Shown here piece by piece: positions 5,854 to 41,638 of a stretch of DNA of 58,552 nt (position 1 is the first letter of the stretch; every line of letters starts with the position of its first letter). The stretch comes from a virus: positions 1-58,552 of the IMG/VR virus record IMGVR_UViG_3300021962_000122. One strand, given 5' to 3'. The notes beneath the pieces are model-generated. The model saw nothing but the letters and a program-made list of their open reading frames with translations. It was not told the DNA's origin and ran no database searches. The position numbers and the translations under genes are program-made.

Positions 5854-5855
5854 CC

Positions 5856-8917: not shown

Positions 8918-8930
8918 AGGGTAAACTTCC

Positions 8931-8963
8931 ACAACCGCAAGTAGTTCGGCCTGCTGCGGTTGT
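8931..8963 (+). promoter_or_regulatory. Hairpin in leader of the giant gene
   Basis: ACAACCGCA at 8931-8939 and TGCGGTTGT at 8955-8963 form a perfect 9-bp stem with a 15-nt loop in the 76-nt gap before the 9.66-kb gene. No T-run follows, so it is not a classical terminator. An RNA-processing or stabilising site is possible. Confidence 0.6.
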
Positions 8964-8993
8964 AAGACCAAGCCGCACAATTCGGAAAAAACT

Positions 8994-11900
8994 ATGCCTC
9001 AAGCTGTCCCGTTACCAGATGGTAGTTACGTAGCAATCAGAGAGGGGGAGACCCCGCAGCAGGCATATGCCCGAGCGCAGCAGATGTACCCTGAGGCGTT
9101 TAGAGTAGCAGCCCCGGCAGCGCCAAAAGAAACTACGTTTGGCGGGCAGACCAAAGAATTTTTTAAAGGTCTTGTCCCCGGCGCTATCGGGCTTGTTGAA
9201 CAAGCGGGTACTGGTATCTCAGCACTGTTACCAGAAGAACAAGAAAAAGCCACTCAAAAATACATCAAAGAAACTGCTGCCGCAGCCAAAGCCCCGTTTG
9301 CCGCTGCGCCGGGGTATGAAGACACGGTGGGGCGCAAGTTTGGTGAAGCCGCAGGTTCTATTGCACCGTTCCTTGCCACTGGGCCGTTTGGTCTGGCAGG
9401 GCGTGTAGCCGGATACGGCCTTGGTGTTGGCGCTGGTGCTGGCACACAGGTAGAAAAGTCTGCCGCTGAAGGGGCTACAGAAGGACAGCAAACAGCCGCC
9501 ACCGCACTGGGTGCCGTGGTTGGCGCATCGGAGATGTTTGCCCCTGCACGTATTCTGAAGCGTCTTGGGGAGCCTGTGCTCGAGGGTGCCACGTCGTATG
9601 TGAAACGGGCATTGATGGCTGGCGGTGAGGAAGCCGCCCAAGAAGCCGCAGCACAAGCCGCACAGAATATTATTACCAAAGGTATATACAAACCTGAGCA
9701 AGAAATTATTGAGCAGGTTGGCGAGTCTGCCGCCTACGGCGGTGCGGTCGGTGCGTTGGCACAAGGGTTGTTGGACTTGGCCATTGGTCGTCGTGCGCCC
9801 ACAACCCCGCTTACAGACGAGGTAAAACAAGCCCGTGAAGAGGCGGCAGTGCAGGCAGAACAGGAAAAGATTCGCCTGAACAGTGTCGATTACGCCCAAG
9901 AAGTGTTCCAGAAAACGCAGGAATTGGAAGCTCAGCGTACTGCGCTCAAACAACAGTTGATTCCGATAAAAAAAGGCGTGTCCCCAGAAACAGACTACGC
10001 ACACAACCGCGACATCAACCGCCAGATCGAGGCCATCAACAAAGAACTCAAGCCGTTGGCTGATGAGTACGTGCGTGTCAAGCCTATTCTGAAACGTGCT
10101 GAGGAGGAAGCAAAGATTGCCAAGCTGACTCCGTACGAGTATGCGTTGGGCTTAAAACCAGAAGAAGTAGGGCAGAAACCTGCCGAGCCTGAGCTGTATG
10201 AACAGCAAATTGCCAAGCCGCCTGAGGCACCGAAGGCAGAGGATGTTGCAGCAAAGTATGCCGCACAGAGTATTCAGTTGGCCAATGACCAACAGCTATC
10301 AAGCGAGAAAAAACCAAACGACGCTGTTGCAGACTACGTTTCCTATCTGATGCGCGACCCCATGTTGGCCGATCAGATTGTGAATAAGCGGATGCAGCTG
10401 CCCGGCCTTCCAACTGGTGTGCGTAATTCAGCCGTACTGGACGCGTTGAAACTGCAACTGGCCCCCGGCTTCAAACAAGAGATGGAAACGCGCAAAGCCG
10501 CCTTTGGTGTGCCTAAAGCCGAAGAAGTCAAGACTCCAGAAGTACAGGCGTTCACTTCGTACATGGACGACCTCAAGAGCAAGCGCAACGACGTGGGCGA
10601 CGACATGTTCTTCAAGTACATGGTCGACCCAAAACTGGAGAAGATTGCGGAAGGTAAGCCCCCAGTCATAGCCGTAAACCCTGAGCTGAAACCCTTTGCC
10701 AACATCAAACGGGCAGAGCGTTCAAGGGAAAAAATAAACGGGTTGCTTGACAACATAGACCAAGCAAACGCAGACCGTGATGTGGCTTTGCGTTCTGGAA
10801 ACCGTGACGCTGCCGACGCAGCGTTTGAAAGAGGCCAAAAAGCGTTAGAACAAATTAATGCTTTTGTAGAACCTACACCCACTGGAGAAGTGACAAAGGG
10901 AAGGTTCCCAGCAGCGGCAACAGCCCCAGAATCCAGCATCTATGCCAAAGAAATACTGCGGGTTCGCAACGAACAGAACACGGCGTTAAACACCATTGAG
11001 GACAAGATTGACCGTCTGCGTCGTGGTGAGACATTGGGCAAAGAAGAAATGGCTGCCACATCGCCAGCCATACTGGCTCAGCAAGCCGAAGAAGCCCGTG
11101 GCAAATACATCTCTGCTGTACTGGAGGAAGCCGCTATCCACCGTCGTGTGGCTGGCAAACCTGAGTTGACCTACGACGAAGCCATCAAAGCCGCGTCTCG
11201 TATTCATGATGTGGTGGGGGAGTGGCTTGACCGTGCAAAGGCTGTACCCAAAAAGCCCGAGCTTGAAGAAGTGATCGTGCAGCCCGCGCAGATGCGGGCA
11301 AACAAACTTGTCCGTGGAGCTGTTACCAAACGTGTTTTGAAGACGCGTGATCTGGCCACAACGCCTTTAAACGAAATTGCACGCTTGAGCGACAAAGAAG
11401 TCAAACACTTCAAAGCTCAGATTGCCAAGGTTGTCGACAGCTTATCCGAATTGCCATCCACAGCCACTCGCGAAGTGCCCGTACTGAAGCAGCAGTTTGC
11501 TGCCACCGAAGCGCAGAAGGTTGCTGAAGCCAAAGGCGAGACAGCCAAGACCCTTGGCGGAGAGCTACGCCGCCTGCGTGAATACGTGGGCAACATGATT
11601 GACAAAGCGTTGACACGCAACCCACCGGAAGAAATACAAAATTCACTGGAACGCGTCAAAGAGATCATTGACGACGGCAAAGCCAGTAAAGAGTTACTTG
11701 ACGCAGCCCAGAATCAAGCTGCACGCATTCTGCGTGGCGAAGACCTCGGCAAGCAGGTGTACACAAAACGCGAAGCTGTCCCCGGCAAACGTGTTGTAGA
11801 AAATGTCCCCGGCAGAGAAGCTGAGACACGTTTTGGGGAACGCGGGCGCACATACAAGTCAGTGGGCTACGAAGCCGAACTGGCACCCGAGGGTAGCGCA

Positions 11901-14900
11901 CTGCGTGAGCTTCAAGATGCCATAAAGCTGTACGAACGTACAGCACAAGAAGGTGAAGTTGCGGGAGAAGGCGCAAAAGGCCAAGGGCAGTTGTTCCCAG
12001 AGACACGCAAAGAACTTGGCTACATCCGTGCCACACCAGCCAACTTTGCCAAGTCCCCACAGATCAAACCTGTATGGGAGGCGTTGGAACAAGCACGCAA
12101 GCTCAAGGCAAAAACAGAAGCCAACCAGAAAGCTCGTTCTGTCAGAGACAAACAAGGCTTTGCGCAAGTTGAAGCAATAGAAGAACAACTTGAAGCCATT
12201 AAAAACCAAATGCAGTTTTTCTTGCTTAAGCCGGGAGACTTCAATATTGGTAAATACTCAAATGCAGACATTGCAAAAATGTTTGCGTCATATCCAGAAG
12301 CAGGCGTTACAAAAGAAGACAAGCTGCTGATGGATCGGTACTTGCAAGTGTCTAGACAAAGTATTGGTAAAACAAAGGATCAACAAGAAAAAGCCATGTC
12401 CGTGTTTACTGCGGAAGAAAAGGCACGCGTAAATGAGTTAATCAGCGACTTCAACACAAACAAAATCCCTGAGTACGAAAAGAATGTTAAGCAGGCGCTG
12501 CAAGCGCTCTCATTGGGACAGCGTCTTGAAAGCACGAATAACCGTTTAGTTGAGTTGATGCAAGACAACAATGCGGCTGTGCGTAAACAATCAGAAGCAG
12601 CCCGCAAAACTGTTGAACCACTACTGGAGAAGTTAAAGCTTATCAAAGCCAGTTTGCGTAATTCTGTTTTGTTAACTGACGGCCAACGTGCAATGCTTGA
12701 TTCTGAAATTGCGTTGCAGTCACAACGTGGCGCATACAAAGACGCCATGGCCAAGGCAATGGGCAAAGCCCGTCAACGCCTGAGCGATACGTTGGGTGAG
12801 TTGCTTGACCCTGAAATTGAACGCGCACGTCGTGCGTTGAAAGCAGCCAAGACACGTTTGGCCACAGTCGAGTCGCAGATTGAAACGGCAAAGAAAGAAA
12901 TGACTGAGGGTACTGGCCAAGCGCCAAACCTGATTAACAACTTGCAAAAAGTTCAAGGGCTTGTTGAGAACATTGAGAAGGCTGAGACCGAACTGGCTGA
13001 CTTGCAAGAAGCACGCTTTGGTGAAATTGAGAACGACGTTGTTGTTACCGAAGCCATGCTGGACAAAGACCTCAAGGCAGAACGTGAGTACTTAGAACTG
13101 CTTGAGCGACAACTGGCTGATATGCGCAAAGAACCGTTGACTGCTGTAGAGCTTGGTGGTCGTGGTGAACTGGGCAAGTTGAAGTATCCGTTCTCTGCAC
13201 AACGTTTGGAAACACAAGTAAAGGCACAACAAGCGGCTGTTGATGAAGCGCAAAAGCGTGCTGAAGAATTCCAAAAAGACGTGCAGGTTTGGTGGCCCAA
13301 AGTTACTGCCGCATTCAAGAAAGATGGAATCAGCATCAAAGACTTGCCCGGCGCAGTGTTTAAGAAAGGCCGCAAAGTTGCTGAGATTGTTACGCCAGAA
13401 CAAAAACGCCTTGATGATTTACGTGACAAAGGTGTGCAGGCTGCAAAAGAAGTTGACGAAGCCGCAGTGCGTCAGCGGGTCAAAGACAAACAGATTCAAT
13501 TGTTCGATGACGAAATCTTTGATGCGCGTGGTGAAGTGCAGGCGTTTATGGGGCCTGAGGACATGGAAAAGTTGGCCGACATCATGGCTGACCCCAAGAC
13601 TACCAACGTCAAACGTGTACAGGCTACGCTCAAGCTGGGCGCTATGCAAAAAGTTGCTTCGTTGGAAGCACAAAAACAAGCGTTCATTGAGGGCAAGCCT
13701 GCACCAAAACCAAAAACTGCTACTGTGCCGAGCACCGTTGCGTTGGCGGCGGCTAAACCGTTTCGTACTGGCTCAGGCGTAGCAAAAGCGTTTACTCCAG
13801 CAGAAATGGATGAGCTGGCTCGCGCTGATATACGTGATGCCAATGAGTTGGCCAAAAAGATTCTGGGTACAAAAGCGCCGCAGTTGCCAGAACCAAGCAA
13901 ACGCAAGCAAGGCAAGATGCCTGACCCCAACCTTGGTTTGTTTGATGACTTTGAGTTTTCTCGCGGCACACCAGTTAAAGGTCTGACCAAGGCTGAGCTT
14001 GAAGCCGAACTCACTGCTGGTATGGGCGAGCCAGTTACTGGGCGCAAGATAGAAGCGATGGTGTCCAATAAATTGGCGGTGTATGAAAGTGTTCAAGATT
14101 TCCTTGACAAGCAACCAAAATTAAAAGGTGTAGGTAAGTCCAAATACGAGGGTTTAATCCCAGCAGATGCCAAAGGCTTTGTGCAAGATGGTAAAGCGGT
14201 ACTGTTTGCCAACAACATTGGTAAAGGCCACGGACTGGGCGTACTGCTCCACGAAGTCGGCGTGCATTTGGGATTCCGCAACTTCTTTAACGAAGGCCAG
14301 TACAACGCGTTGGTTAAGACAGTCAAGAACTGGGCAAACAAAACTGAAGACTCATTGGAAGCGCGTGTTGGTAAAGCCGCCGTGCGCAGGGTTGAGGCTG
14401 CTAACACTCCACCACACCAGATTGACGATGAGTTGTTGGCATACGCTGTTGAAGAAGCCATGCAGATGGGTGTAGAGCCTGTTGGCGTTAAAGGCGGCAA
14501 CGCAGTCAAAAACTGGTTGAAGATGGTGGTCGATGGGTTCAAGAAAGCGCTTGAGAAGTTTGGCATCACTTCTAAGAACTTGACTGCTGGCGACTTGGTT
14601 AACTTTGCCTACGGCGCAGCACACCTTGAACTCAAGGGAACTTGGCACGGCACAGGTGTTAAATTTGATATGTTTGACCATACGTACATGAGCACCGGGT
14701 CAAACGCACAAACGTATGGTTGGGGAACATACCGTGCACAAAAGTACGGCACTGCGCAGTCATATCAAATTGATGCAGCTACAAAACAGTACGACGATTG
14801 GGTTGAACGCCCAGATATACAAGCATGGCTTGAATCACAAAAACCTAAATTTACAGGTAAGTTGCCATCTGGTATTCCTGAGCAATTTTTAGTCATGCCT

Positions 14901-17900
14901 TTGGTTGAAGCCAATAACGCGTACGGAGGTCAAAACCCAAATAAAATTTTTAAAGAAGCTGTTCAAGGCGAAATTGAAAACATTGAAGAGGAAAGAAAAC
15001 AGTTTTCTAATTTAAGTAGTGCGCCGCGTGCTGTACTTGCATCACAAGTATCGCCTGCTAGGGCCGCAATAGCAGCGGCACAGTCTTCTGCACGCGTAAC
15101 TGCCAGACCCATAACTGCAACACCAGTTAGAAACTATGGGTACGGGCCTGTAACTAAACCTTTAAGTTGGCGTGTGGAATGGATGCGGGGGTTGTCTGAC
15201 GCAGAAGTAGATAAAAAAATTGAAGAGCTTAAAAAGTTTGCAGAAACTGCTGACGAACATTTAGAAGCGGTCAATCAATTTCCTGTCTATAAAGGCAAAG
15301 AATACATTGAGTTGTACAAAGCGTACCCCACTGCCGCAAAGGTCATACACGCATTTGACAAAATGATGGACGCCAACCAAGGCACACCACCGTCTTGGAA
15401 AGAAGCTATTGCCAGTGTGAAAGCTGAAGCAAGCAAAAGCGTAAAAGAGTTGGGGGAGTTTTTTGAACGTTTTACATACGGAAAAGACCCGTACACAAAA
15501 CAGGTGTACGACGAAGCAAAAGAAACTTTACGTGACATTGATGCGTTTGACATAAACGACTTTAAGTACAACCCTCCGTCTGGGCCACCTGTACCTGAAC
15601 CAGCAGGTTACATGATGCGCACGTTGCACACACGTCCTGAGAACGAGTACATTCTTTATGACAGCCTTGCAGACAAACAACCAGAAGTTGTTAAAGATGC
15701 GTTTAAACGTATCTACGATAATTTAGATAAAAAACAACAAGCTGTTTTTAACCGTTCAATAGGCTTTGTACGACCAGATCGGCAAAACGGGCGCGATTTG
15801 TATAACGCTTTAAGTGCCGTGCTTGAACAAGGCGGTATGCCTAGTAAGTTGTGCGACATGTTTGCATCTGAAATGCTGCATGCCGAAGGTGTTGCTGGTA
15901 TTAAGTTTTTTGACGGCGTGTCAAGATACTCAGCAGCACAAGGTACTCCGGGCACATACAACTACGTTGACTTTGGTGACAAAGATGAAGGTGCGCAGAT
16001 CATTGCCACCGACATTAATCCGATCAATCAAACACAGCCAATGCAAAAAAGCGAGATACTGTTCTCGCGTTCAGAAGAGTTTACAAACCCTGAGCTTGCC
16101 AAACAAAGCAAGTTTATTGCCAAAATTGTGGCCAAGCAAAGAAGCTGGTCTGAAAAGATTAAAGCCAATACAACCGGGCTGGCTTTTGAAACACAGCTTG
16201 TAGATAGATTTGCAGGCTTCGAGCGTTTGGCCAAATACATGGATCCGGTCAAAGGCACGCAGATGATGTACTACCTGCGCATGTATGACCAACGCATGAA
16301 TTTTGTGTCTCAAGCAGTATCCAATGGCGCACCGGCAATCGTGGAGAAAACACGGCCTGACGGCAAGGTTGAGCGTTTGATTGAGAGCAAAGAGAGCGCC
16401 AACATCCACAATGTTGTTCAGATTTTGAAAGAAGCCCAGCCAATGGTTGGCAACGCAGAAGCTGTAAACCGCATATTCACTTTGTACATGGCCGCTATTC
16501 GTGCGGACAACAAAGGATTGTCTTCATTGAACTTTGGTGAAGACGTTACACAAGAACTGCTCAACGAAACCATGGCCGCCATAAAGGCCACACCCGGCTT
16601 GGAAAAAGTTTTGAAGCAAGCTAAAGATGAGTACAACGCCTACAACCGTAATTTGGTTGAGTTTGTTGTCAGCACTGGCGCTCTTTCCAAAGAAGTCGGC
16701 AAGCGTCTGCTGAGCGAAAACGATTACATACCGTTCTACCGTGAACGCAATGGCGTGGCTGAGCTTGTTATTGGCAACGAATCTCCTATCCGCATTGGTA
16801 GTATTGCTGAGCAGCCGTATCTGCATGAACTTGTTGGTGGCGACAGGCCCATCCTCGACTTCATGACCAGCTCGGTGCAGAACACCAATCTGTTGATGGA
16901 CATGGGTATGCGCAACTTGGCAACCAAGAACGCTGTGTTTGAGCTGGTTGATTTGAAAGCTGCCAAGTTTGTGAAAATGTCTGCTGGCCCAGACGTTGTT
17001 AAATTCAAAGACAACGGAGAAGATCGCTACGCAGTGCTGGCTACCGAAAAAGTAAAAATTGGCAACAAAGAGTTTGATACTGGCGTTCCTGCCGACATAT
17101 TGGTCAAAGGCATGGAGGGCATCCCAACACAGATGCCAGCAATGTTACGCGTCATGGCGTTCCCAGCACAGATACTGCGCAAAGCTATTACCCTCAGCCC
17201 TTTGTACACAGCCAAACAGTTGTTCCGTGACTCCGTGGCCGCGCCTATTCTTTCTGGCGCAGACTTCATGCCTGTCATTGGTGCGCTGAAAGAAATCAAC
17301 TCCACCACCAAGCAGACGCTTGAGCGCCGTGGTGTTACCGGAGGCCAGCAGTTTGTTGGTGGTGCCGAAGATTTGACCAAGATTCTGCGTGATGTGTCTG
17401 AGGGCAAACCGGGCTGGATGACTGCGCTTGGTAAGCTTGAAGCCATGAGTATGGAAGCAGATGCCGCAACACGTCGCGCCCAGTACAACAGCTACATTCA
17501 GCAGGGCCTGTCTGAGATGGAAGCAACACTGCTGTCGTTGGAGTCCATGAACTTCAACAAGCGCGGCGCGTCACCATCAATCCATGTGGCCAACTCCCTG
17601 ATACCTTTTTTCAACGCACAGATTCAAGGTCTGAACGTGTTGTACAAAGCGTCTATGGGCAAGATGCCATTCAACGATCAGCTGCGTATCCGTGAAAAAA
17701 TGATGCAGCGTGGTGCCATGATGGCAGTTGCAAGCCTTGCTTACGCCGCCTTGATGCAGGACGACGAAGCTTACAAAAACGCCACACCCGATCAAAAATA
17801 CGGCAATTGGTTTATTCGTGTGCCGGGTTTAGACGAACCCATCAAACTCCCTGTGCCGTTTGAAATCGGTTACATCTTCAAGGCGTTGCCTGAGGCAATA

Positions 17901-18656
17901 CTCAACAGCATGGTGAACGAGCACGGCGGTGAGGAAGCGGTCAAAGCTTTCAAACAAATCCTGCTTCAAACAGTTCCCGGCGGTTCGTCTTACGGCATCC
18001 CGCAGATCATGAAACCCGCCATCGAAGCAGGACTTGGCAAGTCGTTCTACACAGGTAGGGACATCTTGTCTGCGCGAGAGAAAGAGTTGTTGCCTGAAGA
18101 ACAGTTCCGCGCCAACACATCCGAGCTGGCTAAAGGTATTGGTAAAACACTGGGTATCTCTCCGATTGTGTTTGAGCAACTTGTCAGTGGTTACACCGGC
18201 ACAATGGGTTTGGCATTTATGCACGCACTTAGTGTTGGCGTGCCTACGGATGAGAGTCCTGATAAAGCAGTTAAACGTTTGTCAGAGTACCCAATCGTTG
18301 GTGGGGCGTTCCAACCAAACGACGCTGGTGGCATCATCAACAGCGTGTACGAGCGCATGAATGAAAATCTCAAGGTCAAGAACACCTTCAATAAGTTGGC
18401 ACAAGAAGGCAGAATGTCTGAAGCTATGGCGTTGCTTCAACGTCGTGGTAATGAGTTCATGCAAGCAGACTTGGCGAACAGTTTCAAAGCCAACATGAAC
18501 AAACTTGCTCAGGCTGAACGGGCAATTGCAGCATCCAACATGTCCCCCGAAGCCAAGCGCGAACAGCTGGACAAAATCAGGAAGATAAAGATCGCCGTTG
18601 CTCAAACGGTGAGAGAGGTTTCCGATAAAACCATACGCCTAACAAGCCCCTTCTAA
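8994..18656 (+). CDS. Giant polyvalent virion protein (metallopeptidase-like, ADP-ribosyltransferase-like and LPD-like domains)
   Basis: A single 3220-residue frame. It begins with VPLPDGSYVAIREGETPQQA and a Gly/Ala-rich hydrophobic segment (about 48-260). Long charged coiled coils occupy about 270-1560. At about 1750 lies LLHEVGVHLGFRNFF, a metallopeptidase-like helix in which the histidines are spaced HExxxH rather than HExxH. At about 1883-2335 lies an ADP-ribosyltransferase-like domain: WHGTGVKFDMFD, YGWGTY, then GIKFFDGVSR and GTYNYVDF. From about 2350 to the end is a large helical region (LFRDSVAAP, PFFNAQIQGLNVLYKA) resembling the LPD domains of phage polyvalent proteins. Such proteins are thought to enter the cell with the DNA. 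I see no vRNAP signature despite the N4-like size. Confidence 0.85.
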   Translation: MPQAVPLPDGSYVAIREGETPQQAYARAQQMYPEAFRVAAPAAPKETTFGGQTKEFFKGLVPGAIGLVEQAGTGISALLPEEQEKATQKYIKETAAAAKAPFAAAPGYEDTVGRKFGEAAGSIAPFLATGPFGLAGRVAGYGLGVGAGAGTQVEKSAAEGATEGQQTAATALGAVVGASEMFAPARILKRLGEPVLEGATSYVKRALMAGGEEAAQEAAAQAAQNIITKGIYKPEQEIIEQVGESAAYGGAVGALAQGLLDLAIGRRAPTTPLTDEVKQAREEAAVQAEQEKIRLNSVDYAQEVFQKTQELEAQRTALKQQLIPIKKGVSPETDYAHNRDINRQIEAINKELKPLADEYVRVKPILKRAEEEAKIAKLTPYEYALGLKPEEVGQKPAEPELYEQQIAKPPEAPKAEDVAAKYAAQSIQLANDQQLSSEKKPNDAVADYVSYLMRDPMLADQIVNKRMQLPGLPTGVRNSAVLDALKLQLAPGFKQEMETRKAAFGVPKAEEVKTPEVQAFTSYMDDLKSKRNDVGDDMFFKYMVDPKLEKIAEGKPPVIAVNPELKPFANIKRAERSREKINGLLDNIDQANADRDVALRSGNRDAADAAFERGQKALEQINAFVEPTPTGEVTKGRFPAAATAPESSIYAKEILRVRNEQNTALNTIEDKIDRLRRGETLGKEEMAATSPAILAQQAEEARGKYISAVLEEAAIHRRVAGKPELTYDEAIKAASRIHDVVGEWLDRAKAVPKKPELEEVIVQPAQMRANKLVRGAVTKRVLKTRDLATTPLNEIARLSDKEVKHFKAQIAKVVDSLSELPSTATREVPVLKQQFAATEAQKVAEAKGETAKTLGGELRRLREYVGNMIDKALTRNPPEEIQNSLERVKEIIDDGKASKELLDAAQNQAARILRGEDLGKQVYTKREAVPGKRVVENVPGREAETRFGERGRTYKSVGYEAELAPEGSALRELQDAIKLYERTAQEGEVAGEGAKGQGQLFPETRKELGYIRATPANFAKSPQIKPVWEALEQARKLKAKTEANQKARSVRDKQGFAQVEAIEEQLEAIKNQMQFFLLKPGDFNIGKYSNADIAKMFASYPEAGVTKEDKLLMDRYLQVSRQSIGKTKDQQEKAMSVFTAEEKARVNELISDFNTNKIPEYEKNVKQALQALSLGQRLESTNNRLVELMQDNNAAVRKQSEAARKTVEPLLEKLKLIKASLRNSVLLTDGQRAMLDSEIALQSQRGAYKDAMAKAMGKARQRLSDTLGELLDPEIERARRALKAAKTRLATVESQIETAKKEMTEGTGQAPNLINNLQKVQGLVENIEKAETELADLQEARFGEIENDVVVTEAMLDKDLKAEREYLELLERQLADMRKEPLTAVELGGRGELGKLKYPFSAQRLETQVKAQQAAVDEAQKRAEEFQKDVQVWWPKVTAAFKKDGISIKDLPGAVFKKGRKVAEIVTPEQKRLDDLRDKGVQAAKEVDEAAVRQRVKDKQIQLFDDEIFDARGEVQAFMGPEDMEKLADIMADPKTTNVKRVQATLKLGAMQKVASLEAQKQAFIEGKPAPKPKTATVPSTVALAAAKPFRTGSGVAKAFTPAEMDELARADIRDANELAKKILGTKAPQLPEPSKRKQGKMPDPNLGLFDDFEFSRGTPVKGLTKAELEAELTAGMGEPVTGRKIEAMVSNKLAVYESVQDFLDKQPKLKGVGKSKYEGLIPADAKGFVQDGKAVLFANNIGKGHGLGVLLHEVGVHLGFRNFFNEGQYNALVKTVKNWANKTEDSLEARVGKAAVRRVEAANTPPHQIDDELLAYAVEEAMQMGVEPVGVKGGNAVKNWLKMVVDGFKKALEKFGITSKNLTAGDLVNFAYGAAHLELKGTWHGTGVKFDMFDHTYMSTGSNAQTYGWGTYRAQKYGTAQSYQIDAATKQYDDWVERPDIQAWLESQKPKFTGKLPSGIPEQFLVMPLVEANNAYGGQNPNKIFKEAVQGEIENIEEERKQFSNLSSAPRAVLASQVSPARAAIAAAQSSARVTARPITATPVRNYGYGPVTKPLSWRVEWMRGLSDAEVDKKIEELKKFAETADEHLEAVNQFPVYKGKEYIELYKAYPTAAKVIHAFDKMMDANQGTPPSWKEAIASVKAEASKSVKELGEFFERFTYGKDPYTKQVYDEAKETLRDIDAFDINDFKYNPPSGPPVPEPAGYMMRTLHTRPENEYILYDSLADKQPEVVKDAFKRIYDNLDKKQQAVFNRSIGFVRPDRQNGRDLYNALSAVLEQGGMPSKLCDMFASEMLHAEGVAGIKFFDGVSRYSAAQGTPGTYNYVDFGDKDEGAQIIATDINPINQTQPMQKSEILFSRSEEFTNPELAKQSKFIAKIVAKQRSWSEKIKANTTGLAFETQLVDRFAGFERLAKYMDPVKGTQMMYYLRMYDQRMNFVSQAVSNGAPAIVEKTRPDGKVERLIESKESANIHNVVQILKEAQPMVGNAEAVNRIFTLYMAAIRADNKGLSSLNFGEDVTQELLNETMAAIKATPGLEKVLKQAKDEYNAYNRNLVEFVVSTGALSKEVGKRLLSENDYIPFYRERNGVAELVIGNESPIRIGSIAEQPYLHELVGGDRPILDFMTSSVQNTNLLMDMGMRNLATKNAVFELVDLKAAKFVKMSAGPDVVKFKDNGEDRYAVLATEKVKIGNKEFDTGVPADILVKGMEGIPTQMPAMLRVMAFPAQILRKAITLSPLYTAKQLFRDSVAAPILSGADFMPVIGALKEINSTTKQTLERRGVTGGQQFVGGAEDLTKILRDVSEGKPGWMTALGKLEAMSMEADAATRRAQYNSYIQQGLSEMEATLLSLESMNFNKRGASPSIHVANSLIPFFNAQIQGLNVLYKASMGKMPFNDQLRIREKMMQRGAMMAVASLAYAALMQDDEAYKNATPDQKYGNWFIRVPGLDEPIKLPVPFEIGYIFKALPEAILNSMVNEHGGEEAVKAFKQILLQTVPGGSSYGIPQIMKPAIEAGLGKSFYTGRDILSAREKELLPEEQFRANTSELAKGIGKTLGISPIVFEQLVSGYTGTMGLAFMHALSVGVPTDESPDKAVKRLSEYPIVGGAFQPNDAGGIINSVYERMNENLKVKNTFNKLAQEGRMSEAMALLQRRGNEFMQADLANSFKANMNKLAQAERAIAASNMSPEAKREQLDKIRKIKIAVAQTVREVSDKTIRLTSPF

Positions 18657-23261: not shown

Positions 23262-23711
23262 TTACTTGGTTGGTTTGCGAACAGAGATTGCGTACTCAGT
23301 CAATGAGTTCAATCCGGGTGGTACGAGGCCGGGGTTATCTTCAAGAAATGTTGCCATGTTGGTCTGCGCAATACGCTTCTCCAACAGATCAACGGCTTCG
23401 TGTTGAAGCACGAATGTCTTGAATGAATCCCAGTCTTGTGTGTTGTAGCGTGTCTTTGTGGACAACACTACAGTGCCTTGGTCAGTGCGCACAGAGGACA
23501 CGCCCAGTGCAAGCATCTGATCTTTGAGGGCAATCTTCACGATGTCTTGCTGTCGTTTGATTTCCTCAACTTCGTTTTCGTACGCTTGAGTCAGCTCTTG
23601 AATTCGAGCCGCCATCTTACGGTACACCTTTGCCAACTTGTCCATTGGGACAGTGGACATTTCACTCGGCTCCTCTGTGGCGGGAGCATCATCGTCGACT
23701 ATTGCAGTCAT
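23262..23711 (-). CDS. Conserved replication-module protein of unknown function
   Basis: 149 residues: an acidic N-terminus, a helical segment (LAKVYRKMAARIQELTQAYE), then a beta part (GTVVLSTKTRYNTQDWDSF) and the ending NPGLVPPGLNSLTEYAISVR, which I recognise as a conserved phage pattern usually next to the SSB-like gene. It is upstream of that gene by 16 bp with a good SD (CAGGAGAAGCAA). A partner of the ssDNA-binding protein is a reasonable guess only. Confidence 0.65.
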   Translation of the reverse strand: MTAIVDDDAPATEEPSEMSTVPMDKLAKVYRKMAARIQELTQAYENEVEEIKRQQDIVKIALKDQMLALGVSSVRTDQGTVVLSTKTRYNTQDWDSFKTFVLQHEAVDLLEKRIAQTNMATFLEDNPGLVPPGLNSLTEYAISVRKPTK

Positions 23712-23716: not shown

Positions 23717-23770
23717 TCTCCTGTTATTTTGTCTAACGTTTAACATCATACACGGAACAAAATCAAACAC
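23717..23770 (-). promoter_or_regulatory. Possible internal promoter before the SSB-like pair
   Basis: The 69-bp gap after the helicase stop contains, on the minus strand, TTGTGT, 16 nt, then TATGAT, reasonably placed before the 149-aa gene. The -10 is 5/6, the -35 only partial. Confidence 0.3.
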
Positions 23771-31911: not shown

Positions 31912-32424
31912 TCAGCCTCCAAACATTTTCTTCAGCTCATCATACAAAGCTCGCGCCTGTTTTAAGCCGATGTTGTTGATAATTGTTTCTGCATCCCACT
32001 GAGTTGTTGCTGTAGTTTGAGGTGCCAGCGCGGCAATGCCAGCACTCTTTGGCTTGGTAACTATTTTGTTGATGCGTTTGCCCTCAGCTTTAAACTTCTT
32101 GGTTGCCTTCAGCGGTGTGTATGTGGGTACGATTAAAGTGAGCCGTCCGTTGTGGTCACGCACCATTTGTTTTTGCTTTACAAATTGTGTGAGCAGTGAC
32201 CCCACAGAGGCACGCTTGAACCCACGCTTCTCCAGCGCATCACATATCTCACCGCCGTTTTTGCTTGGGTTGTTCTTGACATAGTTGAATGTCTCTTGTG
32301 TCACATTGTTGGTTGGTTTGAATGCTTGGGGTAATGCTTTCACTTTTTTCTCCTGTTGAATTTGTTGGTCGTCTTTTTCCCATGATGAAAGCGCAGTCGA
32401 TAGCGCGGTTTTCAAATCAGGCAT
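31912..32424 (-). CDS. Winged-helix-like DNA-binding protein
   Basis: 170 residues. The region QETFNYVKNNPSKNGGEICDALEKRGFKRASVGSLLTQFVKQKQMVRDHNGRLTLI reads as a winged helix (three helices then a beta wing). A basic linker follows, and a C-terminal helix (AETIINNIGLKQARALYDEL). Likely a regulator or replication accessory; direct evidence is only the fold pattern. Confidence 0.65.
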   Translation of the reverse strand: MPDLKTALSTALSSWEKDDQQIQQEKKVKALPQAFKPTNNVTQETFNYVKNNPSKNGGEICDALEKRGFKRASVGSLLTQFVKQKQMVRDHNGRLTLIVPTYTPLKATKKFKAEGKRINKIVTKPKSAGIAALAPQTTATTQWDAETIINNIGLKQARALYDELKKMFGG

Positions 32425-32439: not shown

Positions 32440-33327
32440 TTAGAAACTGAACTTACTTAAGATTGCGTCAACATTCTTCTTGACATCTTGACGCACAGCC
32501 TCGTTCTTGCGTAGCTCAGTTGGTGTGACACCAACCAACATTTGCTCGAGGTCACGACGCGCTGTCTCCAACGCGGGGTCGTTCACAATGTTGAGTGCCT
32601 TGGTCAGGTCACACAACTCAAGCGCACCTTCTACCAAGGTGTCGTGGAAGCGACGAGGCTTGGCTTCACCTTGTACATAGTCAGTGGTCAGTCTGTCGGA
32701 CATACGTTTGAGGTGGGTGCCAAGGCGTTCGCGTACATCTGCCATCGCATGGTCAATGCGTTCTTGTGTCAGCTTGTCGAGCTTGGCTTTCAACGCTGCC
32801 TGTGCTTTGTTGCCCACATCTACGCGGAAGTCACCCGATGTAGGCACAGGCATGTAGTTAACACGAAACGAAAACTTGGTCATGATTTCGTTGGCACTCG
32901 GGTAGTCATCTCTCTTGAACATGTCGCCCAAAGCCATAGCCTGAGCAGTAATCAACGAGGGATAGATTGCCACGAATGACTTGACCAACGCAGTGAACTC
33001 ATGCTCGAAGTCGTCCAGCTTTTCTGTAAAAGTTATGAACGATGTGTTGGGCAACAAGCGCAAGCCTGAGTCAGACCAAGGCGATGTCTTGTCATACACA
33101 TACTGACGCGCACGACCAACAGCTTGTTGGATAACCTCCAACTCTGTGCGACCTGCAAGCAGGTGCTTGTTGACGCGAGCCGCATCTTTCGCGGCGGCGT
33201 TCTTGTTTGCTACAACCTCATCGGTTGTTGTCTTGTCTAGCTTGCGTGCTGTCCAGACCGATGCGTTGAATTCAACAAGCATCGCGCATGTGTCGATGTT
33301 GTAACGGGGTGTAGTTGCTGTGTTCAT
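32440..33327 (-). CDS. DUF3150-like protein of the MoxR/VWA cassette
   Basis: 295 residues, helical and charged, N-terminus CAMLVEFNASVWTARKLDK, then LLPNTSFITFTEKL. I recognise it as the DUF3150-type protein that accompanies a MoxR-like ATPase in phages. Its position next to the AAA+ gene with 24 bp spacing supports a shared complex. It is probably the substrate or adaptor of the ATPase; its biochemistry is unknown. Confidence 0.7.
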   Translation of the reverse strand: MNTATTPRYNIDTCAMLVEFNASVWTARKLDKTTTDEVVANKNAAAKDAARVNKHLLAGRTELEVIQQAVGRARQYVYDKTSPWSDSGLRLLPNTSFITFTEKLDDFEHEFTALVKSFVAIYPSLITAQAMALGDMFKRDDYPSANEIMTKFSFRVNYMPVPTSGDFRVDVGNKAQAALKAKLDKLTQERIDHAMADVRERLGTHLKRMSDRLTTDYVQGEAKPRRFHDTLVEGALELCDLTKALNIVNDPALETARRDLEQMLVGVTPTELRKNEAVRQDVKKNVDAILSKFSF

Positions 33328-33351
33328 GTTGTGCTCTCCTTGGTTGATTGA

Positions 33352-34476
33352 TTACTTGTTACCGAAATAAATTTTGTGCTCGGACAACATCTTGCCGAAG
33401 TTGGCAATGGTTGCGAACACGCCTACACGCTGAGATGTAGCGACGGTGTTGCAGAAGATTGATTGCATCTCTGCACGCATACGCCACACATACTCAGTGA
33501 CTGCTTCAGCTTCTTCGCGTGTCTGTGCACGAGATACAAACTGGAAGACTTGAATCAACTGCGCGGTTGGGTTGTCAGACATCGGTGCCTTGGCAGGGTC
33601 AGCGATAACACGCGCATAGTCACAGATGTCACGACCGAAGCGAACGAACGATGCCATTGCCTCGGCAGTAACGACACCGACAGTACCGATGAGTGCATGC
33701 TCAAGTGTGTCGTCGTCAAGTGTGTGCATGCCCTCGTCCAAGATGTCACCAGCGGCAACGAGGGAACGAGGCGTTGCATACGCGAGTTGTGTGGACTTGG
33801 GATTGAAGATGTGCGCGTTGTCTTTGGACAGCGTCTTACCCTCAAACTTGCCACCCTTCTCGTAGTCGAGGAACGAGTCCATGACCATCGGGTTGTTGTC
33901 AACGAATGCAATGACCATCGGATTGACACCCGCATCGGTAGCCCAACGCACCCACTCGACAGCAGTCGGCTTGCGCATCTTGACGAACACAAGACGGTTG
34001 CGTAGGTGAGCTTGGATGGAGTCGCCAAGACCCTCGACCGAGAGATTGGTAGCGGCAAAGACAACGCTACCCTCGACGAAGTGATAGTTGCCAACGCGTT
34101 GCTCGTAGACGATAGGCGCAAGAACATTCTTGATGAACTGCGGTGCCTTGGCTATCTCATCTAAGAACACCATGATAGGTTTGCCACCGTTAACGCCACG
34201 CTGATTGGTTTTGGATACACCGAAGCGTTCATTGGGAAGCTCACGCGACACGCCGTTCTCACGGTCAAGGTCAGGCATCCACACCGAGCCATCGGACAAC
34301 TGAGTGCAGTCGATGGGGTCAACGGCAATGTGATTGGCAAACTTAGGCAGACGCTTGAGTTGATGGAACAACGCAGTCTTGCCGATACCGTTCTCGCCCT
34401 CGACGATGACGGTACGCTTGTGACCCACAGCAGAGATGAGGTCAATGACTTGAGAAGAAGAGAGATATTTATCCAT
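33352..34476 (-). CDS. MoxR/CobS-like AAA+ ATPase
   Basis: 374 residues. Walker A GENGIGKT (27-34) and Walker B IMVFLDEIA (101-109) are intact. FAATNLSVEGLGDSI is sensor-1-like and RNRLVFVKMRKPTAVEW carries an arginine-finger region. This family remodels protein complexes together with a VWA-domain partner, here encoded directly upstream. The three genes form one cassette behind a promoter near 35.73 kb. Confidence 0.85.
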   Translation of the reverse strand: MDKYLSSSQVIDLISAVGHKRTVIVEGENGIGKTALFHQLKRLPKFANHIAVDPIDCTQLSDGSVWMPDLDRENGVSRELPNERFGVSKTNQRGVNGGKPIMVFLDEIAKAPQFIKNVLAPIVYEQRVGNYHFVEGSVVFAATNLSVEGLGDSIQAHLRNRLVFVKMRKPTAVEWVRWATDAGVNPMVIAFVDNNPMVMDSFLDYEKGGKFEGKTLSKDNAHIFNPKSTQLAYATPRSLVAAGDILDEGMHTLDDDTLEHALIGTVGVVTAEAMASFVRFGRDICDYARVIADPAKAPMSDNPTAQLIQVFQFVSRAQTREEAEAVTEYVWRMRAEMQSIFCNTVATSQRVGVFATIANFGKMLSEHKIYFGNK

Positions 34477-34497
34477 GATTACTTTCCTTTGTGTTGA

Positions 34498-35694
34498 TTA
34501 AAGATTGATATGCAAGACCTTGCCGTAAGTGGGAACGAACGAGTCGTTGTCCACCACACCCCACAGAGACGGCATCGGGGTGCTAGGCGTATCGCAACCG
34601 AGGTATCCATCGGTTAGCCACACGATTGCTTTGGCATCTATCTTGTGCTCACGAATGTAGTCGACAACAACTTGTGGAGTTGTGCCACCACCGCCTTGAG
34701 GTTGCAAGAGAGACGCAATCAATTCATACTCAGTTGGTTTGAACAACTGTTCACCGCACACTTCGTTGTCCCACCACAAGATGCGAACAGCCTCGGGCTT
34801 GACCAGTTGACAGATGCGAGCAACCTCGCCAAAGAGCAGACGATAGTGCGGATACATCGAGCCTGATGTATCGCATGCAAGTATCAACTCGCCAACTGAC
34901 TCGGTGAAGTGCGAAGGCATGATGAAGCCAGACGCAAGCAGTCGTTTGTTGGGAGGACAGAAGCGTGAGTTGTCATCGCCTTGGGATATGGCAGTTATCC
35001 AGTCCTGCATAGCTGGTCGCCAGTCAGTGATGCGTTCCTTGGCATGACCGAAGATGTCACGCCCGCCATTGCCCTTGCCCGCCAACTTACGCGCAAGCAT
35101 CTCGCCTTGACGATTGGCATCGTCAATTTGTTTGCTTAGCTTTTCTTTCTCGTCATCGGCAAACTCACCGTCCTCATGTGCGTCGATAGGTTCGTCATAC
35201 CCATGGTCATCGTCACTGCCATTGCCGTCCTTGTCAGGTTCCTTGCGCCCTTGTTTGATGAGGTCGTTGAGTACTTGAGGGAAAGACCAACCGAAGTATT
35301 TGCGGTCAATCAGTAGCGTTGGTGTGGGGCGTTCAACGAATGTGAAGTTGGGGTCAAGCTCTTCGATGAGTGCGTTGACCACATAGTCCTGCGCGATGTT
35401 GCTGAGCTTAGGCATGCGCTTAATCTCTGCACGATACAACACACAGTGCTTGAGTGCCACATGGAAGTTCTCATGCAGTACGAGATAGCGCAGTTGCTTG
35501 CGGTTGAGTGGTGTGATGAAGTCAGCGCCGTACTTCTTGTCACGCCCATTGGTGGATGCGGTAGGCACCTTGTCCGATACCTCGGACTTGCCCATACATA
35601 TCACACCGCTGAGCAATGCGAATCGGTGGTCACGCATGCAGTCGATGTTGCACGCCTGAACCCGTTGGGTGAGGGTCATCTTCTCGAAAGTCAT
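34498..35694 (-). CDS. Metallopeptidase-like/VWA-domain protein (DUF2201-type)
   Basis: 398 residues. The N-terminal half has LVLHENFHVALKH (74-78 is HExxH), a zinc site in a helical domain. A charged acidic linker with many D/E residues lies near 160-185. The C-terminal VWA-like domain has LACDTSGSMYPHY near 273, a MIDAS DxSGS. It is the usual partner of the MoxR ATPase downstream. The HExxH may make it a protease whose action is gated by the ATPase; that is inference. Confidence 0.8.
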   Translation of the reverse strand: MTFEKMTLTQRVQACNIDCMRDHRFALLSGVICMGKSEVSDKVPTASTNGRDKKYGADFITPLNRKQLRYLVLHENFHVALKHCVLYRAEIKRMPKLSNIAQDYVVNALIEELDPNFTFVERPTPTLLIDRKYFGWSFPQVLNDLIKQGRKEPDKDGNGSDDDHGYDEPIDAHEDGEFADDEKEKLSKQIDDANRQGEMLARKLAGKGNGGRDIFGHAKERITDWRPAMQDWITAISQGDDNSRFCPPNKRLLASGFIMPSHFTESVGELILACDTSGSMYPHYRLLFGEVARICQLVKPEAVRILWWDNEVCGEQLFKPTEYELIASLLQPQGGGGTTPQVVVDYIREHKIDAKAIVWLTDGYLGCDTPSTPMPSLWGVVDNDSFVPTYGKVLHINL

Positions 35695-35720: not shown

Positions 35721-35753
35721 AATTCTAGCATGCCTGTCAAAGGTTTGACAGGC
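35721..35753 (-). promoter_or_regulatory. Extended -10 promoter with overlapping palindrome
   Basis: On the minus strand TGC-TAGAAT (35730-35722) is an extended -10. The upstream palindrome GCCTGTCAAA-N2-TTTGACAGGC (35732-35753, perfect 10-bp arms) covers the -35 area and may be an operator or stem. It lies in the 77-bp gap between the 321-aa gene and the VWA gene, so it would drive the VWA/MoxR/DUF3150 cassette. Confidence 0.5.
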
Positions 35754-35771: not shown

Positions 35772-36737
35772 TTACCAGTGCACATTACTGCGCGGGTAAT
35801 CTTTCTCCACAACAAATTGTGGAATAGTCTGCTTGACCGACTTCTTGTCCAAGTCCAGCGCCTTGAGGATGCGGGTCGACACCGCCTTGCGTAGGTCTTC
35901 TGCGGTGATGGGTTTGTCCAGCTTGTCGATGCTGTCGTTGTTGGGGTTGTTGCTGTGCCATGAATACGCAAGCGTGAAGTTTTCCTGCGCGTATGCACGC
36001 TTGGATGCCAACACATTCACCGCGTCTTGACACATCTCAAAGAAAGCATCAACCATGGATTGCGGCGGTGAGTCGTGGTGCGCTATTGCCTCGACTGCTT
36101 CACGATAGTGGTATATCTGCATACCGTTACCCCATGGACGACCCTTGCCTCTGCTCAGCTCTGCGCTTGCAGCAAACTCAGGCAGTCGCATCTGTGCAAG
36201 CATGATGAAGTTATCGAACCGCTTGAGTATCTCTGCGCGTGCCGTCTTGTCATCGTTGCCCGACACCATTTTGTGGTGCGGTGTGTGGACTGACTGCGCG
36301 GGGTCAAGGAACCCATCAACGAATATGAAGTCAGCGCTGAAGCTTTCGCCATCGTTGTGCAAGGATGACCTGTTGTAGATAGGTGCTATTACTCTTGTGC
36401 CATCAGCAAGCTCTATCGCATGACTTCTTGATATGCCAAGGACATGGTACATAAAGTCTTTGCTGGTAACTGAGTTGTCACCCATGTACAAGCGGCGTTC
36501 ATGTTTCTTGCCGTCGACTATCGTGGGTTCGTAGTACCTTGCCATCACTGTGTGATACAGAACGACATCGTAGTACTCAGGGTGCTTGACCAAGCGGTAG
36601 TGGTGGTAGGTCTTGTACAAGGGGCGTTCGTTCTCTGCCCACTTCTTACTGCGTACTGCGCCACGCTTGTTGAACACTGCTGTTGCTTCAGTGTAGTTGC
36701 GTACCCAAGCTAAGTGTCTTGTTGTGTTTCCAAACAT
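35772..36737 (-). CDS. Conserved phage protein of unknown function
   Basis: 321 residues from the ATG at 36737 (AGGAGTAAGCAAC upstream). Landmarks are FMYHVLGISRSHAIELADGT, ADFIFVDGF and YAQENFTLAYSWHSNNPN. No known domain is recognised. It is upstream of the MoxR/VWA promoter and may have its own role in early takeover. Confidence 0.65.
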   Translation of the reverse strand: MFGNTTRHLAWVRNYTEATAVFNKRGAVRSKKWAENERPLYKTYHHYRLVKHPEYYDVVLYHTVMARYYEPTIVDGKKHERRLYMGDNSVTSKDFMYHVLGISRSHAIELADGTRVIAPIYNRSSLHNDGESFSADFIFVDGFLDPAQSVHTPHHKMVSGNDDKTARAEILKRFDNFIMLAQMRLPEFAASAELSRGKGRPWGNGMQIYHYREAVEAIAHHDSPPQSMVDAFFEMCQDAVNVLASKRAYAQENFTLAYSWHSNNPNNDSIDKLDKPITAEDLRKAVSTRILKALDLDKKSVKQTIPQFVVEKDYPRSNVHW

Positions 36738-38365: not shown

Positions 38366-38392
38366 AACTGGCAGACACCATGTCTGCGAGTT
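38366..38392. repeat. 27-bp palindromic element, copy 1
   Basis: AACTGGCAGACA-CCA-TGTCTGCGAGTT; one mismatch in the 12-bp arms. It lies 50-76 nt upstream of the acidic gene. On the plus strand it runs into TTTT. Confidence 0.85.
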
Positions 38393-39159: not shown

Positions 39160-39186
39160 AACTCGCAGACACCATGTCTGCCAGTT
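39160..39186. repeat. 27-bp palindromic element, copy 2
   Basis: AACTCGCAGACA-CCA-TGTCTGCCAGTT. It covers the stop codon of the upstream zinc-ribbon gene and lies 27-53 nt before the start of the 57-aa gene. Confidence 0.85.
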
Positions 39187-40236: not shown

Positions 40237-40263
40237 AACTGGCAGACACGATGTCTGCCAGTT
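40237..40263. repeat. 27-bp palindromic element, copy 3 (perfect)
   Basis: AACTGGCAGACA-CGA-TGTCTGCCAGTT with perfect 12-bp arms, 10 bp after the stop of the 61-aa gene (40273). No T-run follows on the minus strand, so a terminator role alone does not explain it. Confidence 0.85.
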
Positions 40264-40827: not shown

Positions 40828-40854
40828 AACTGGCAGACAAGATGTCTGCGAGTT
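40828..40854 (-). terminator. 27-bp palindromic element, copy 4, with T-run
   Basis: On the minus strand AACTCGCAGACA-TCT-TGTCTGCCAGTT followed by TTTT. It overlaps the stop codon of the 131-aa gene (TAA at 40853-40855), so here it has the structure of an intrinsic terminator. Confidence 0.75.
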
Positions 40855-41248
40855 ACTGAACAGAAGCCAAGAAACGGCGCTTTTGTGCCGTAGTCAGCTT
40901 CTCGTATGACTCAACGAGTTTGGTAACAGCGTCCTTCTTCTTGCTTGTCTGTGGCTTCTTGCTGTCCTTTTGCACATCCACAAAGATATTGTTGAGAATG
41001 CGACTGACTCGTCTTTCCTCAGCTGTGCCATGCCCGAATGCCCAGCCACGCTGACCCTTGTAAGGCTTGCGTGTGGTGGTGGACAACTCAGACACATAGA
41101 ACACGACATAAGGGCGTGCTTCTGCTCGTGTGCCTACACCATTGGCAAGCAAGGTGTCGAGCAAAGTGGCAGACTCGATGTCTGCGAGTTTCAGGGTAGG
41201 AACGATTGCCCGATATGTGTTCGGGTTGATTGCTGTTGCGAGTTTCAT
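40853..41248 (-). CDS. First gene of the leftward early operon, unknown function
   Basis: 131 residues from ATG 41248 (MKLATAINPNTYRAIVPTLK) with SD GGAGAGCTATCT. A beta-rich middle (ARPYVVFYVSELSTT, GQRGWAFGHG) and a Lys-rich C-terminus (DSKKPQTSKKKDAVTKLVE). First gene behind the strongest promoter; probably expressed early and highly. Its own sequence contains a degenerate copy of the palindromic element. Confidence 0.7.
   Translation of the reverse strand: MKLATAINPNTYRAIVPTLKLADIESATLLDTLLANGVGTRAEARPYVVFYVSELSTTTRKPYKGQRGWAFGHGTAEERRVSRILNNIFVDVQKDSKKPQTSKKKDAVTKLVESYEKLTTAQKRRFLASVQ
41164..41190. repeat. 27-bp palindromic element, copy 5 (degenerate, intragenic)
   Basis: AAGTGGCAGACT-CGA-TGTCTGCGAGTT lies within the 131-aa gene and codes LADIESATLL. 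The arms have mismatches. Confidence 0.65.
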
Positions 41249-41260
41249 AGATAGCTCTCC

Positions 41261-41287
41261 AAAAGAAAAACCCCGCAACTGGCGGGG
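41261..41287 (-). terminator. Attenuator-like intrinsic terminator in the early leader
   Basis: On the minus strand CCCCGC-CAGTT-GCGGGG (41287-41271) is followed by TTTTTCTTTT (41270-41261). It lies between the promoter near 41.33 kb and the first start codon at 41248. Confidence 0.75.
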
Positions 41288-41323
41288 CGACAGACCGACT
41301 GAGTTCCCCCAATCGATAAATCT

Positions 41324-41332
41324 ATTATAGCA
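41324..41332 (-). promoter_or_regulatory. Extended -10 promoter of the leftward operon
   Basis: TGC-TATAAT on the minus strand is a consensus extended -10. There is no good -35 (GTATTG at 17 nt), as expected for such promoters. It matches the TGC-TAGAAT promoter before the VWA gene. Confidence 0.7.
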
Positions 41333-41638
41333 CAAACGAGTTTCACAATACCCTTGACATGAAAAATCGTAATACCTTAGACCCCACCATACCCCCACCA
41401 CCCCATATGTCAGCGAGGCAGGCGTTGTCCCGTGAACACTACTCCCCTCCGATTCCCAGCACCCCAGTAATACTTAACCCCTACACCCCCTAAATTTTTC
41501 TAAAAATTCCAAACAACCTGTGTCAAACGTTGGACAACCGTATCCGTAAAAAAACCCCCCGGCATCGCTGACGAGGGGTTGAACAGTTGGGTCACAACTG
41601 AGGAGAGAAGCAAGTGCTTGCGCAACTGCTGGAAATAA
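41333..41638. other. Divergent intergenic region
   Basis: About 300 bp without a gene between the two divergent operons. The part 41385-41490 is C-rich on the plus strand. An AT palindrome AATTTTT-CT-AAAAATT lies at 41493-41508, and a minus-strand terminator at 41548-41580. I found no clear plus-strand sigma70 promoter; one must lie here for the terminase operon. Confidence 0.6.
41548..41580 (-). terminator. Minus-strand intrinsic terminator facing the structural genes
   Basis: On the minus strand AACCCC, a 16-nt loop, GGGGTT, then a T-run (seven T in all). No minus-strand gene lies upstream of it, so it would stop antisense transcripts from the terminase region. Confidence 0.55.

What the first reader, a model, noticed from the sequence alone, without database searches (positions are those of the whole stretch)
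32440..35694. MoxR AAA+/VWA-metallopeptidase/DUF3150-like cassette with its own promoter
Three adjacent genes encode an AAA+ motor, a VWA protein that also has an HExxH motif, and a DUF3150-like partner, behind an extended -10 promoter that overlaps a perfect palindrome. Such systems remodel protein complexes in cells; their task in a phage is not established. It could attack a host target or mature phage proteins.
Basis: partly seen in the sequence, partly recalled or inferred. Interest (0 to 1): 0.7.

Follow-up and report, generated by a model that had tools for sequence, protein, structure and literature searches.

The report
Phage AAA+/VWA-peptidase/DUF3150 accessory cassette
This freshwater phage carries an optional, separately controlled set of genes for a molecular 'pull-and-cut' machine (an ATP-driven motor, a partner with a protein-cutting site, and a conserved helper of unknown shape) that close relatives swap for other enzyme modules and that plasmids also carry, which points to a role in dealing with the host cell rather than in building virus particles.

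Summary
Three leftward genes encode a VWA protein with a DUF2201_N metallopeptidase domain (35694-34498), a AAA+ ATPase whose nearest solved relative is midasin (34476-33352), and a DUF3150 protein (33327-32440). The promoter and palindrome are real and evolutionarily maintained.

Comparison with relatives changes the picture in four ways. (1) The triad is linked in 34 of 34 informative viral relatives, despite a change of gene order, and is colinear on Burkholderiales and Acetobacteraceae plasmids. (2) Among 24 relatives found through their DNA polymerase, 14 carry all of U348-VWA-AAA-DUF3150 and 10 carry none. (3) Eight cassette-less relatives hold a different module in the same slot, yet some have portal and head proteins 90-98% identical to this phage's, so virion assembly does not need the cassette. 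(4) The palindrome core TGTCNANNNNTNGACA recurs before several genes, including a likely winged-helix gene, so the cassette belongs to a phage regulon.

Best reading: an exchangeable early/middle accessory module that extracts and cleaves a non-virion target; the target is unknown. The AAA+/VWA-peptidase pair is already known (N4 gp24/gp25; jumbo phages). The DUF3150 partner, the all-or-none exchange and the regulon are the additions.

The parts
34498..35694 (-). VWA co-factor with N-terminal putative zinc metallopeptidase domain (DUF2201_N + DUF2201), 398 aa; HExxH 74-78, H83, D103, N107; MIDAS D275/S277/S279/T338/D362
   Evidence: Pfam; PHROG_1314; conservation; AF2 model (mean pLDDT 75) with VWA fold closest to the MDN1 MIDAS domain
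33352..34476 (-). AAA+ ATPase of the midasin/MoxR/dynein-related kind, 374 aa; Walker A 27-34, Walker B D106 E107, sensor-1 N144, R161
   Evidence: PHROG_1297; profile search, midasin E=2.5e-28; conservation
32440..33327 (-). DUF3150 protein, 295 aa; conserved third partner, proposed adaptor
   Evidence: Pfam DUF3150 4.9e-6 above cut-off; relatives on plasmids and in phage Pag-Yong1; AF2 mean pLDDT 64, no PDB fold match
35772..36737 (-). U348: unknown protein (about 321 aa from the ATG conserved in relatives; ORF extends to 36818), linked all-or-none with the triad in this phage family
   Evidence: no Pfam or PDB match
35732..35753 (.). Palindrome GCCTGTCAAA-N2-TTTGACAGGC, proposed operator; core TGTCNANNNNTNGACA at 35735-35750
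   Evidence: conserved with two-sided changes; recurs at other genes
35722..35730 (-). Extended -10 element TGC-TAGAAT of the cassette promoter
31912..32424 (-). 170-aa winged-helix-like protein (weak PHROG_1324 'transcriptional activator'); follows DUF3150 by 15 bp; in cassette-less relatives it has its own copy of the operator about 44 bp upstream; candidate regulator
41521..41536 (.). Second exact operator core (TGTCAAACGTTGGACA) about 120 bp upstream of the 182-aa gene 40853-41401, in the divergent region before the terminase operon
23730..23745 (.). Third operator core with one mismatch, just upstream of the 149-aa gene 23262-23711; the homologous site is exact in 38 relatives. In the window alone this one-mismatch match is not above chance

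Best explanation
The locus is an optional early/middle-region accessory module of this phage family. The AAA+ protein probably forms a ring. The VWA/MIDAS domain grips a peptide or domain of a target complex, as midasin does. ATP hydrolysis pulls the target out or remodels it, and the attached HExxH metallopeptidase domain cuts it. DUF3150 and, in this family, U348 probably choose the target. The target is most likely a host or cellular protein complex met after DNA entry (host take-over or counter-defence), not a virion protein. Transcription starts at the cassette's own promoter under a phage-wide operator, together with the downstream winged-helix-like gene. Shown here: homology, active-site conservation, linkage, all-or-none occurrence, exchange with other modules, operator conservation. 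Inferred: ring and complex formation, proteolysis, target, timing, identity of the regulator.
For: Domains and invariant active sites from phages to plasmids. Midasin is the nearest solved AAA+ and MDN1-MIDAS the top VWA fold match. Linkage in 34/34 despite two gene orders. All-or-none 14 against 10 in a set found by DNA polymerase, with no copy elsewhere in the cassette-less records. Slot occupied instead by amidoligase/GATase or Cys-rich/M20-M28-like modules. Virion proteins do not follow the cassette: portal 90-91% and head protein 98% in cassette-less relatives, portal 67-73% in some carriers. Same triad on plasmids, several near PRTRC (ThiF) or type IV secretion genes. Location in the leftward replication-gene block, opposite to the structural genes. 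Own operator-promoter conserved.
Against: No target, interaction or activity has been shown. In N4-like phages the AAA+/VWA pair is a core gene pair (PMC4193335), which fits a general phage function better than an optional counter-defence. No known defence or anti-defence model matches convincingly. DUF3150 has no recognised fold. The records are metagenomic contigs of unknown completeness. One relative (L022) carries the cassette and an amidoligase pair together.
Confidence: 0.5

Rival explanations
1. Virion assembly chaperone-protease: the AAA+/VWA-peptidase pair remodels and cuts phage structural proteins, as proposed for group 2.2 jumbo phages and by analogy with Acidianus two-tailed virus p618/p892.
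For: Published proposal for the same domain pair (PMC7824862); p618 is a virion component and binds the VWA protein p892 (PMC4124505).
Against: Close relatives without the cassette have portal proteins 82-91% and head proteins 86-98% identical to this phage's. Plasmids carry the same triad. The genes lie in the replication-side operon, and the N4 homologues are middle genes (PMC4193335).
Confidence: 0.12
2. Remodeller of the phage's or element's own replication/recombination complexes (for example loading or unloading of replication proteins).
For: Always in replication-side regions: near DNA polymerase here, near helicase, DNA polymerase or dNTP genes in N4-likes; DUF3150 with CobT-like VWA lies near YqaJ exonuclease, RecT or primase genes in several bacterial loci.
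Against: Close relatives with DNA polymerase 78-85% identical dispense with it, so basic replication does not need it; the alternative modules are not replication enzymes.
Confidence: 0.22
3. Cobaltochelatase-like CobS/CobT auxiliary metabolic pair that boosts cobalamin synthesis.
For: DUF3150 also accompanies CbbQ-type AAA+ and CobT-like VWA genes in bacterial loci; viral cobST has been proposed to do this (PMC8651126).
Against: This VWA protein matches DUF2201, not CobT, and has a conserved metallopeptidase site that CobT does not need. No cobN seen among the proteins scanned.
Confidence: 0.04
4. The HExxH is structural and no proteolysis occurs; the module is a pure AAA+/VWA chaperone.
For: No zinc binding or cleavage shown; metallopeptidase status in Pfam is 'putative'.
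Against: H74, E75, H78, D103 and N107 are invariant across phages and plasmids wherever the region is present; neutral drift would be expected at a dead site.
Confidence: 0.12

Closest known systems
N4 (Schitoviridae) gp24/gp25 ATPase and vWFA protein (PHROG 1297/1314)
   Same: Homologous AAA+ and DUF2201-type VWA proteins, usually adjacent, in middle/early regions
   Different: No DUF3150 or U348 found at those loci; core gene pair there (PMC4193335), optional cassette here
MoxR/vWA-metallopeptidase pair of group 2.2 jumbo phages (Iyer et al. 2021, PMC7824862)
   Same: AAA+ plus VWA fused to an N-terminal metallopeptidase domain
   Different: Published as a two-gene pair proposed for virion assembly; here a DUF3150 partner, all-or-none exchange, and virion proteins that do not track it
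Plasmid AAA+/DUF3150/VWA-like clusters of Burkholderiales and Acetobacteraceae, several near PRTRC cassettes
   Same: Same three families, contiguous and same strand, with conserved active sites
   Different: 23-32% identity; order AAA-DUF3150-VWA; no U348; different neighbours
Midasin (Rea1/Mdn1)
   Same: Nearest solved AAA+ by profile and nearest VWA/MIDAS fold; works by MIDAS-gripped, AAA+-powered extraction (PMC6624252)
   Different: Single giant eukaryotic protein with six AAA domains and no peptidase; this is a multi-gene phage system
RavA-ViaA and VMAP ternary MoxR-vWA systems
   Same: General AAA+/VWA chaperone logic, sometimes with a third component (PMC7159879)
   Different: Third component here is DUF3150; VWA carries a peptidase domain; no effector domains detected

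Membership tests
MoxR/midasin-type AAA+ ATPases | Walker A/B, sensor-1 Asn and arginine finger | tested here: met
   K33, D106, N144, R161 invariant and E107 E/D in 36 sequences
MoxR/midasin-type AAA+ ATPases | Closer to MoxR/midasin clade than to other AAA+ | tested here: met
   Profile hits midasin at 2.5e-28, next families about 6e-9
MoxR/midasin-type AAA+ ATPases | Helix-2 insert that defines the clade | not tested
DUF2201 VWA-like family | MIDAS DxSxS...T...D and VWA fold | tested here: met
   Pfam; invariant residues; fold
DUF2201_N putative metallopeptidases | HExxH plus further conserved ligand | tested here: met
   H74 E75 H78 H83 D103 N107
DUF2201_N putative metallopeptidases | Zinc binding and peptidase activity | not testable with these tools
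   needs purified protein
DUF3150 | Pfam model above curated cut-off | tested here: met
   26.5 against 24.9 bits; some close relatives fall below it but are found by alignment profile
N4 gp24/gp25 pair | Homology of both proteins and adjacency | tested here: met
CobS/CobT cobaltochelatase | CobT-type VWA and CobN partner | tested here: not met
   VWA is DUF2201 type; no CobN among the proteins scanned
VMAP ternary conflict systems | VMAP protein and effector domains | tested here: not met
   third component is DUF3150; no effector domains in Pfam scan
Known anti-phage defence or anti-defence systems | PADLOC model match | tested here: not met
   only weak generic AAA matches
Virion assembly MoxR/VWA (ATV p618/p892) | Required with the virion proteins it serves | tested here: not met
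   virion proteins conserved in relatives lacking the cassette

The most novel reading that the evidence does not exclude
The cassette is a new kind of counter-defence or host-takeover machine shared by phages and conjugative plasmids: a midasin-like extractor fused to a metallopeptidase and aimed by DUF3150/U348, sitting in an exchange slot where relatives carry other protein-modifying modules (amidoligase/amidotransferase; M20/M28-like peptidase), controlled by one phage regulator.
Probability: 0.3. Interest if true: 0.82.

Novelty: new variant of a known kind. Interest (0 to 1): 0.58.

Why it matters
N4 gp24/gp25 is a core gene pair of a large phage family, listed as of unknown function or only as 'vWFA domain' in the literature read here, and PHROG 1314, and with it many genome records, calls gp25 an 'HNH endonuclease', for which the Pfam scan gave no support. 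This family offers natural presence/absence variants with nearly the same virion, a conserved third partner (DUF3150, not mentioned in any paper of the searched library), and a defined promoter/operator. Together these make the function directly testable and argue against the published virion-assembly proposal for this branch. If the target is a defence complex, it would be a powered-proteolysis way of disarming host immunity shared by phages and plasmids.

Tried and rejected
DNA-level search in phage records found nothing, so comparison had to be at protein level. PADLOC and NCBIfam gave no useful match. U348 as an AcrVA2-like protein, suggested by the neighbour in Pag-Yong1: no similarity, dropped. 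DUF3150 fold search: low-confidence model and no PDB match. Palindrome as terminator: no T-run follows on either strand and it sits at near-fixed spacing to the -10. Palindrome unique to the cassette: rejected, its core recurs at other genes. Rfam: nothing in the window. Alternative slot modules as CobS/CobT: rejected, they are amidoligase/GATase and M20/M28-like proteins. Papers on DUF3150 or on SXT/IncC cobS genes: none useful.

Full report
What is there. The window is a 58,552-base IMG/VR virus record. Three genes on the - strand follow each other with gaps of 21 and 24 bp. The first (35694-34498) encodes a 398-aa protein with Pfam DUF2201_N (putative metallopeptidase, 3e-13) and DUF2201 (VWA-like, 2.6e-11). 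The second (34476-33352) encodes a 374-aa AAA+ protein (PHROG 1297, 3.6e-38). The third (33327-32440) encodes a 295-aa DUF3150 protein (26.5 bits, cut-off 24.9).

Are the active sites kept? In alignments of phage and plasmid homologues the HExxH residues H74, E75 and H78 are identical in every sequence that covers them. D103, N107 and the MIDAS residues D275, S277, S279, T338 and D362 are invariant in all 49. In the AAA+, K33, D106, N144 and R161 are invariant in all 36, and E107 is E or D. dN/dS against relatives is 0.06-0.21. These are functional proteins under purifying selection.

What they resemble. A profile of the AAA+ protein finds midasin (Rea1/Mdn1) at 2.5e-28, far ahead of any other AAA+. 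The AlphaFold model of the VWA protein (mean pLDDT 75) has the human MDN1 MIDAS domain as its first PDB match, E=5.6e-4. Midasin's MIDAS holds a ubiquitin-like domain of its substrate while the AAA+ ring drives its removal from a particle (PMC6624252). DUF3150 has a low-confidence model with two long helices and no PDB match, so its adaptor role is inference from conservation and position only.

Linkage. Searching viral contigs with the VWA protein gave 36 loci. In all 34 that are long enough, the three genes are within about 3.3-4.5 kb on one strand, in two orders (VWA-AAA-DUF3150 or AAA-VWA-DUF3150, some with small genes inserted). A further gene, U348 (36737-35772), lies directly upstream wherever the contig reaches it. 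Distances among the three proteins correlate closely (r 0.95-0.98), which also reflects common ancestry.

Beyond this family. The triad is contiguous as AAA-DUF3150-VWA on plasmids of Rhodovastum, Cupriavidus, Burkholderia and Robbsia, and slightly spread on Simplicispira. The Cupriavidus, Burkholderia and Robbsia copies lie a few kb from PRTRC/ThiF genes, and the Burkholderia and Robbsia copies next to type IV secretion genes. Phage Pag-Yong1 has all three. N4-like phages, Vequintavirinae and a jumbo phage have the AAA+/VWA pair without DUF3150 at the locus. In Pseudomonadota genomes DUF3150 passed its cut-off in 9 of 399 genomes sampled. The seven loci examined also hold a CobT-like VWA gene, and in five of them a CbbQ-type AAA+ gene was found; several lie near YqaJ, RecT or primase genes. 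DUF3150 is thus a recurrent companion of two kinds of AAA+/VWA pairs on mobile-element-like DNA.

Is it essential to the phage? To avoid bias I searched with the DNA polymerase instead. Of 24 relatives with at least 6.5 kb upstream, 14 have U348, VWA, AAA+ and DUF3150, and 10 have none of the four. The cassette-less records have no AAA+ or VWA homologue elsewhere. In eight of them the same slot, upstream of the 170-aa gene, holds another module: amidoligase + class-II glutamine amidotransferase (four loci) or a Cys-rich protein + M20/M28-like peptidase (four loci). One relative, L022, has the cassette and an amidoligase pair together, so exclusivity is not absolute. All-or-none gain or loss supports one functional unit.

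Virion assembly tested. Iyer et al. proposed a virion-assembly role for the jumbo-phage pair (PMC7824862). Here cassette-less relatives have portal proteins 82-91% and major head proteins 86-98% identical to the window's, while some cassette carriers have portals only 67-73% identical. Particle proteins do not track the cassette. With the plasmid copies and the replication-side location, this makes an assembly role unlikely in this family. One distant cassette-less relative (L129: portal 33%, head 39%) is outside this statement. The contigs are linear and possibly incomplete, but the slot itself is contiguous in these cases.

Promoter and operator. The palindrome at 35732-35753 is perfect and unique in the window, with none expected. 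It abuts an extended -10 (TGC-TAGAAT). In relatives of the same gene order the arrangement is kept, and three pairs of the arms change on both sides (97% of cells paired, covariation above all shuffles). Its core TGTCNANNNNTNGACA recurs upstream of the VWA gene (37 loci), the 149-aa gene 23262-23711 (38 loci), the 170-aa gene in cassette-less relatives (11 loci, typically about 44 bp upstream) and the 182-aa gene 40853-41401 (5 loci). The window has exact cores at 35735 and 41521 and a one-mismatch copy at 23730; one-mismatch matches alone are not above chance in the window, so the evidence is the homologous position. It looks like a regulon of one phage regulator. The 170-aa protein, which reads like a winged helix and weakly matches a PHROG 'transcriptional activator', is the natural candidate. 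In the window it follows DUF3150 by 15 bp and would be co-transcribed with the cassette. In relatives with the other gene order a different conserved extended -10 promoter precedes the AAA+ gene.

Mechanism. Most likely a AAA+ ring with VWA co-factor grips a target through MIDAS, pulls it, and the attached peptidase cuts it, with DUF3150 and U348 giving target choice. The likely target is cellular (take-over or counter-defence), because the module is optional, exchangeable and shared with plasmids. Confidence 0.5; complex formation, proteolysis and the target are unproven. The main remaining rival is remodelling of replication or recombination complexes.

Novelty. The AAA+/VWA-metallopeptidase pair is known. 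New here are the DUF3150 triad across phages and plasmids, the U348 link, the exchange slot, the regulon, and evidence against the assembly role. I class it as a new variant of a known kind.

Noticed in passing
window 38371-38387, 39165-39181, 40242-40258, 40833-40849 (and 41169-41185 with one mismatch): A second palindrome family GCAGACANNNTGTCTGC occurs four times exactly in a 2.5-kb stretch (0.04 expected within one mismatch), in the leftward operon; possible second operator or processing site.
   Followed up: partly
window 8994-18656: A 3220-aa protein on the structural strand with LPD38 (large polyvalent protein domain, 2.8e-30) at its C-terminal end; possibly injected with the DNA.
   Followed up: no
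PHROG_1314 and many RefSeq phage records: N4 gp25-type VWA/metallopeptidases are labelled 'HNH endonuclease'; the Pfam scan of the window protein gives only metallopeptidase and VWA domains, so the label looks like a propagated misannotation.
   Followed up: partly
L100 2016-4992 and L118 3035-5578: Alternative slot modules: amidoligase + class-II glutamine amidotransferase, and Cys-rich protein + M20/M28-like peptidase, replacing the cassette in relatives.
   Followed up: partly
L060 (Vibrio phage VCO139) 4095-5884: The AAA+ gene appears split in two pieces around an annotated HNH homing endonuclease.
   Followed up: no
L053 (Manganitrophus plasmid) 5854-8876: DUF3150 follows an AAA protein, DUF1257 and DUF2997, with no VWA gene found nearby: a possible third type of DUF3150 neighbourhood.
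   Followed up: no
plasmid records CP057073 and NZ_CP110465: 'Plasmid' entries whose VWA region looks phage-like: the first matches Vequintavirinae gene order, the second has the size and VWA match of an N4-like phage.
   Followed up: no
L077 2000-4993 with 7903-11283: A ribonucleotide reductase gene lies near a DUF3150/CobT-like pair; it may bear on the cobalamin idea for that branch.
   Followed up: no
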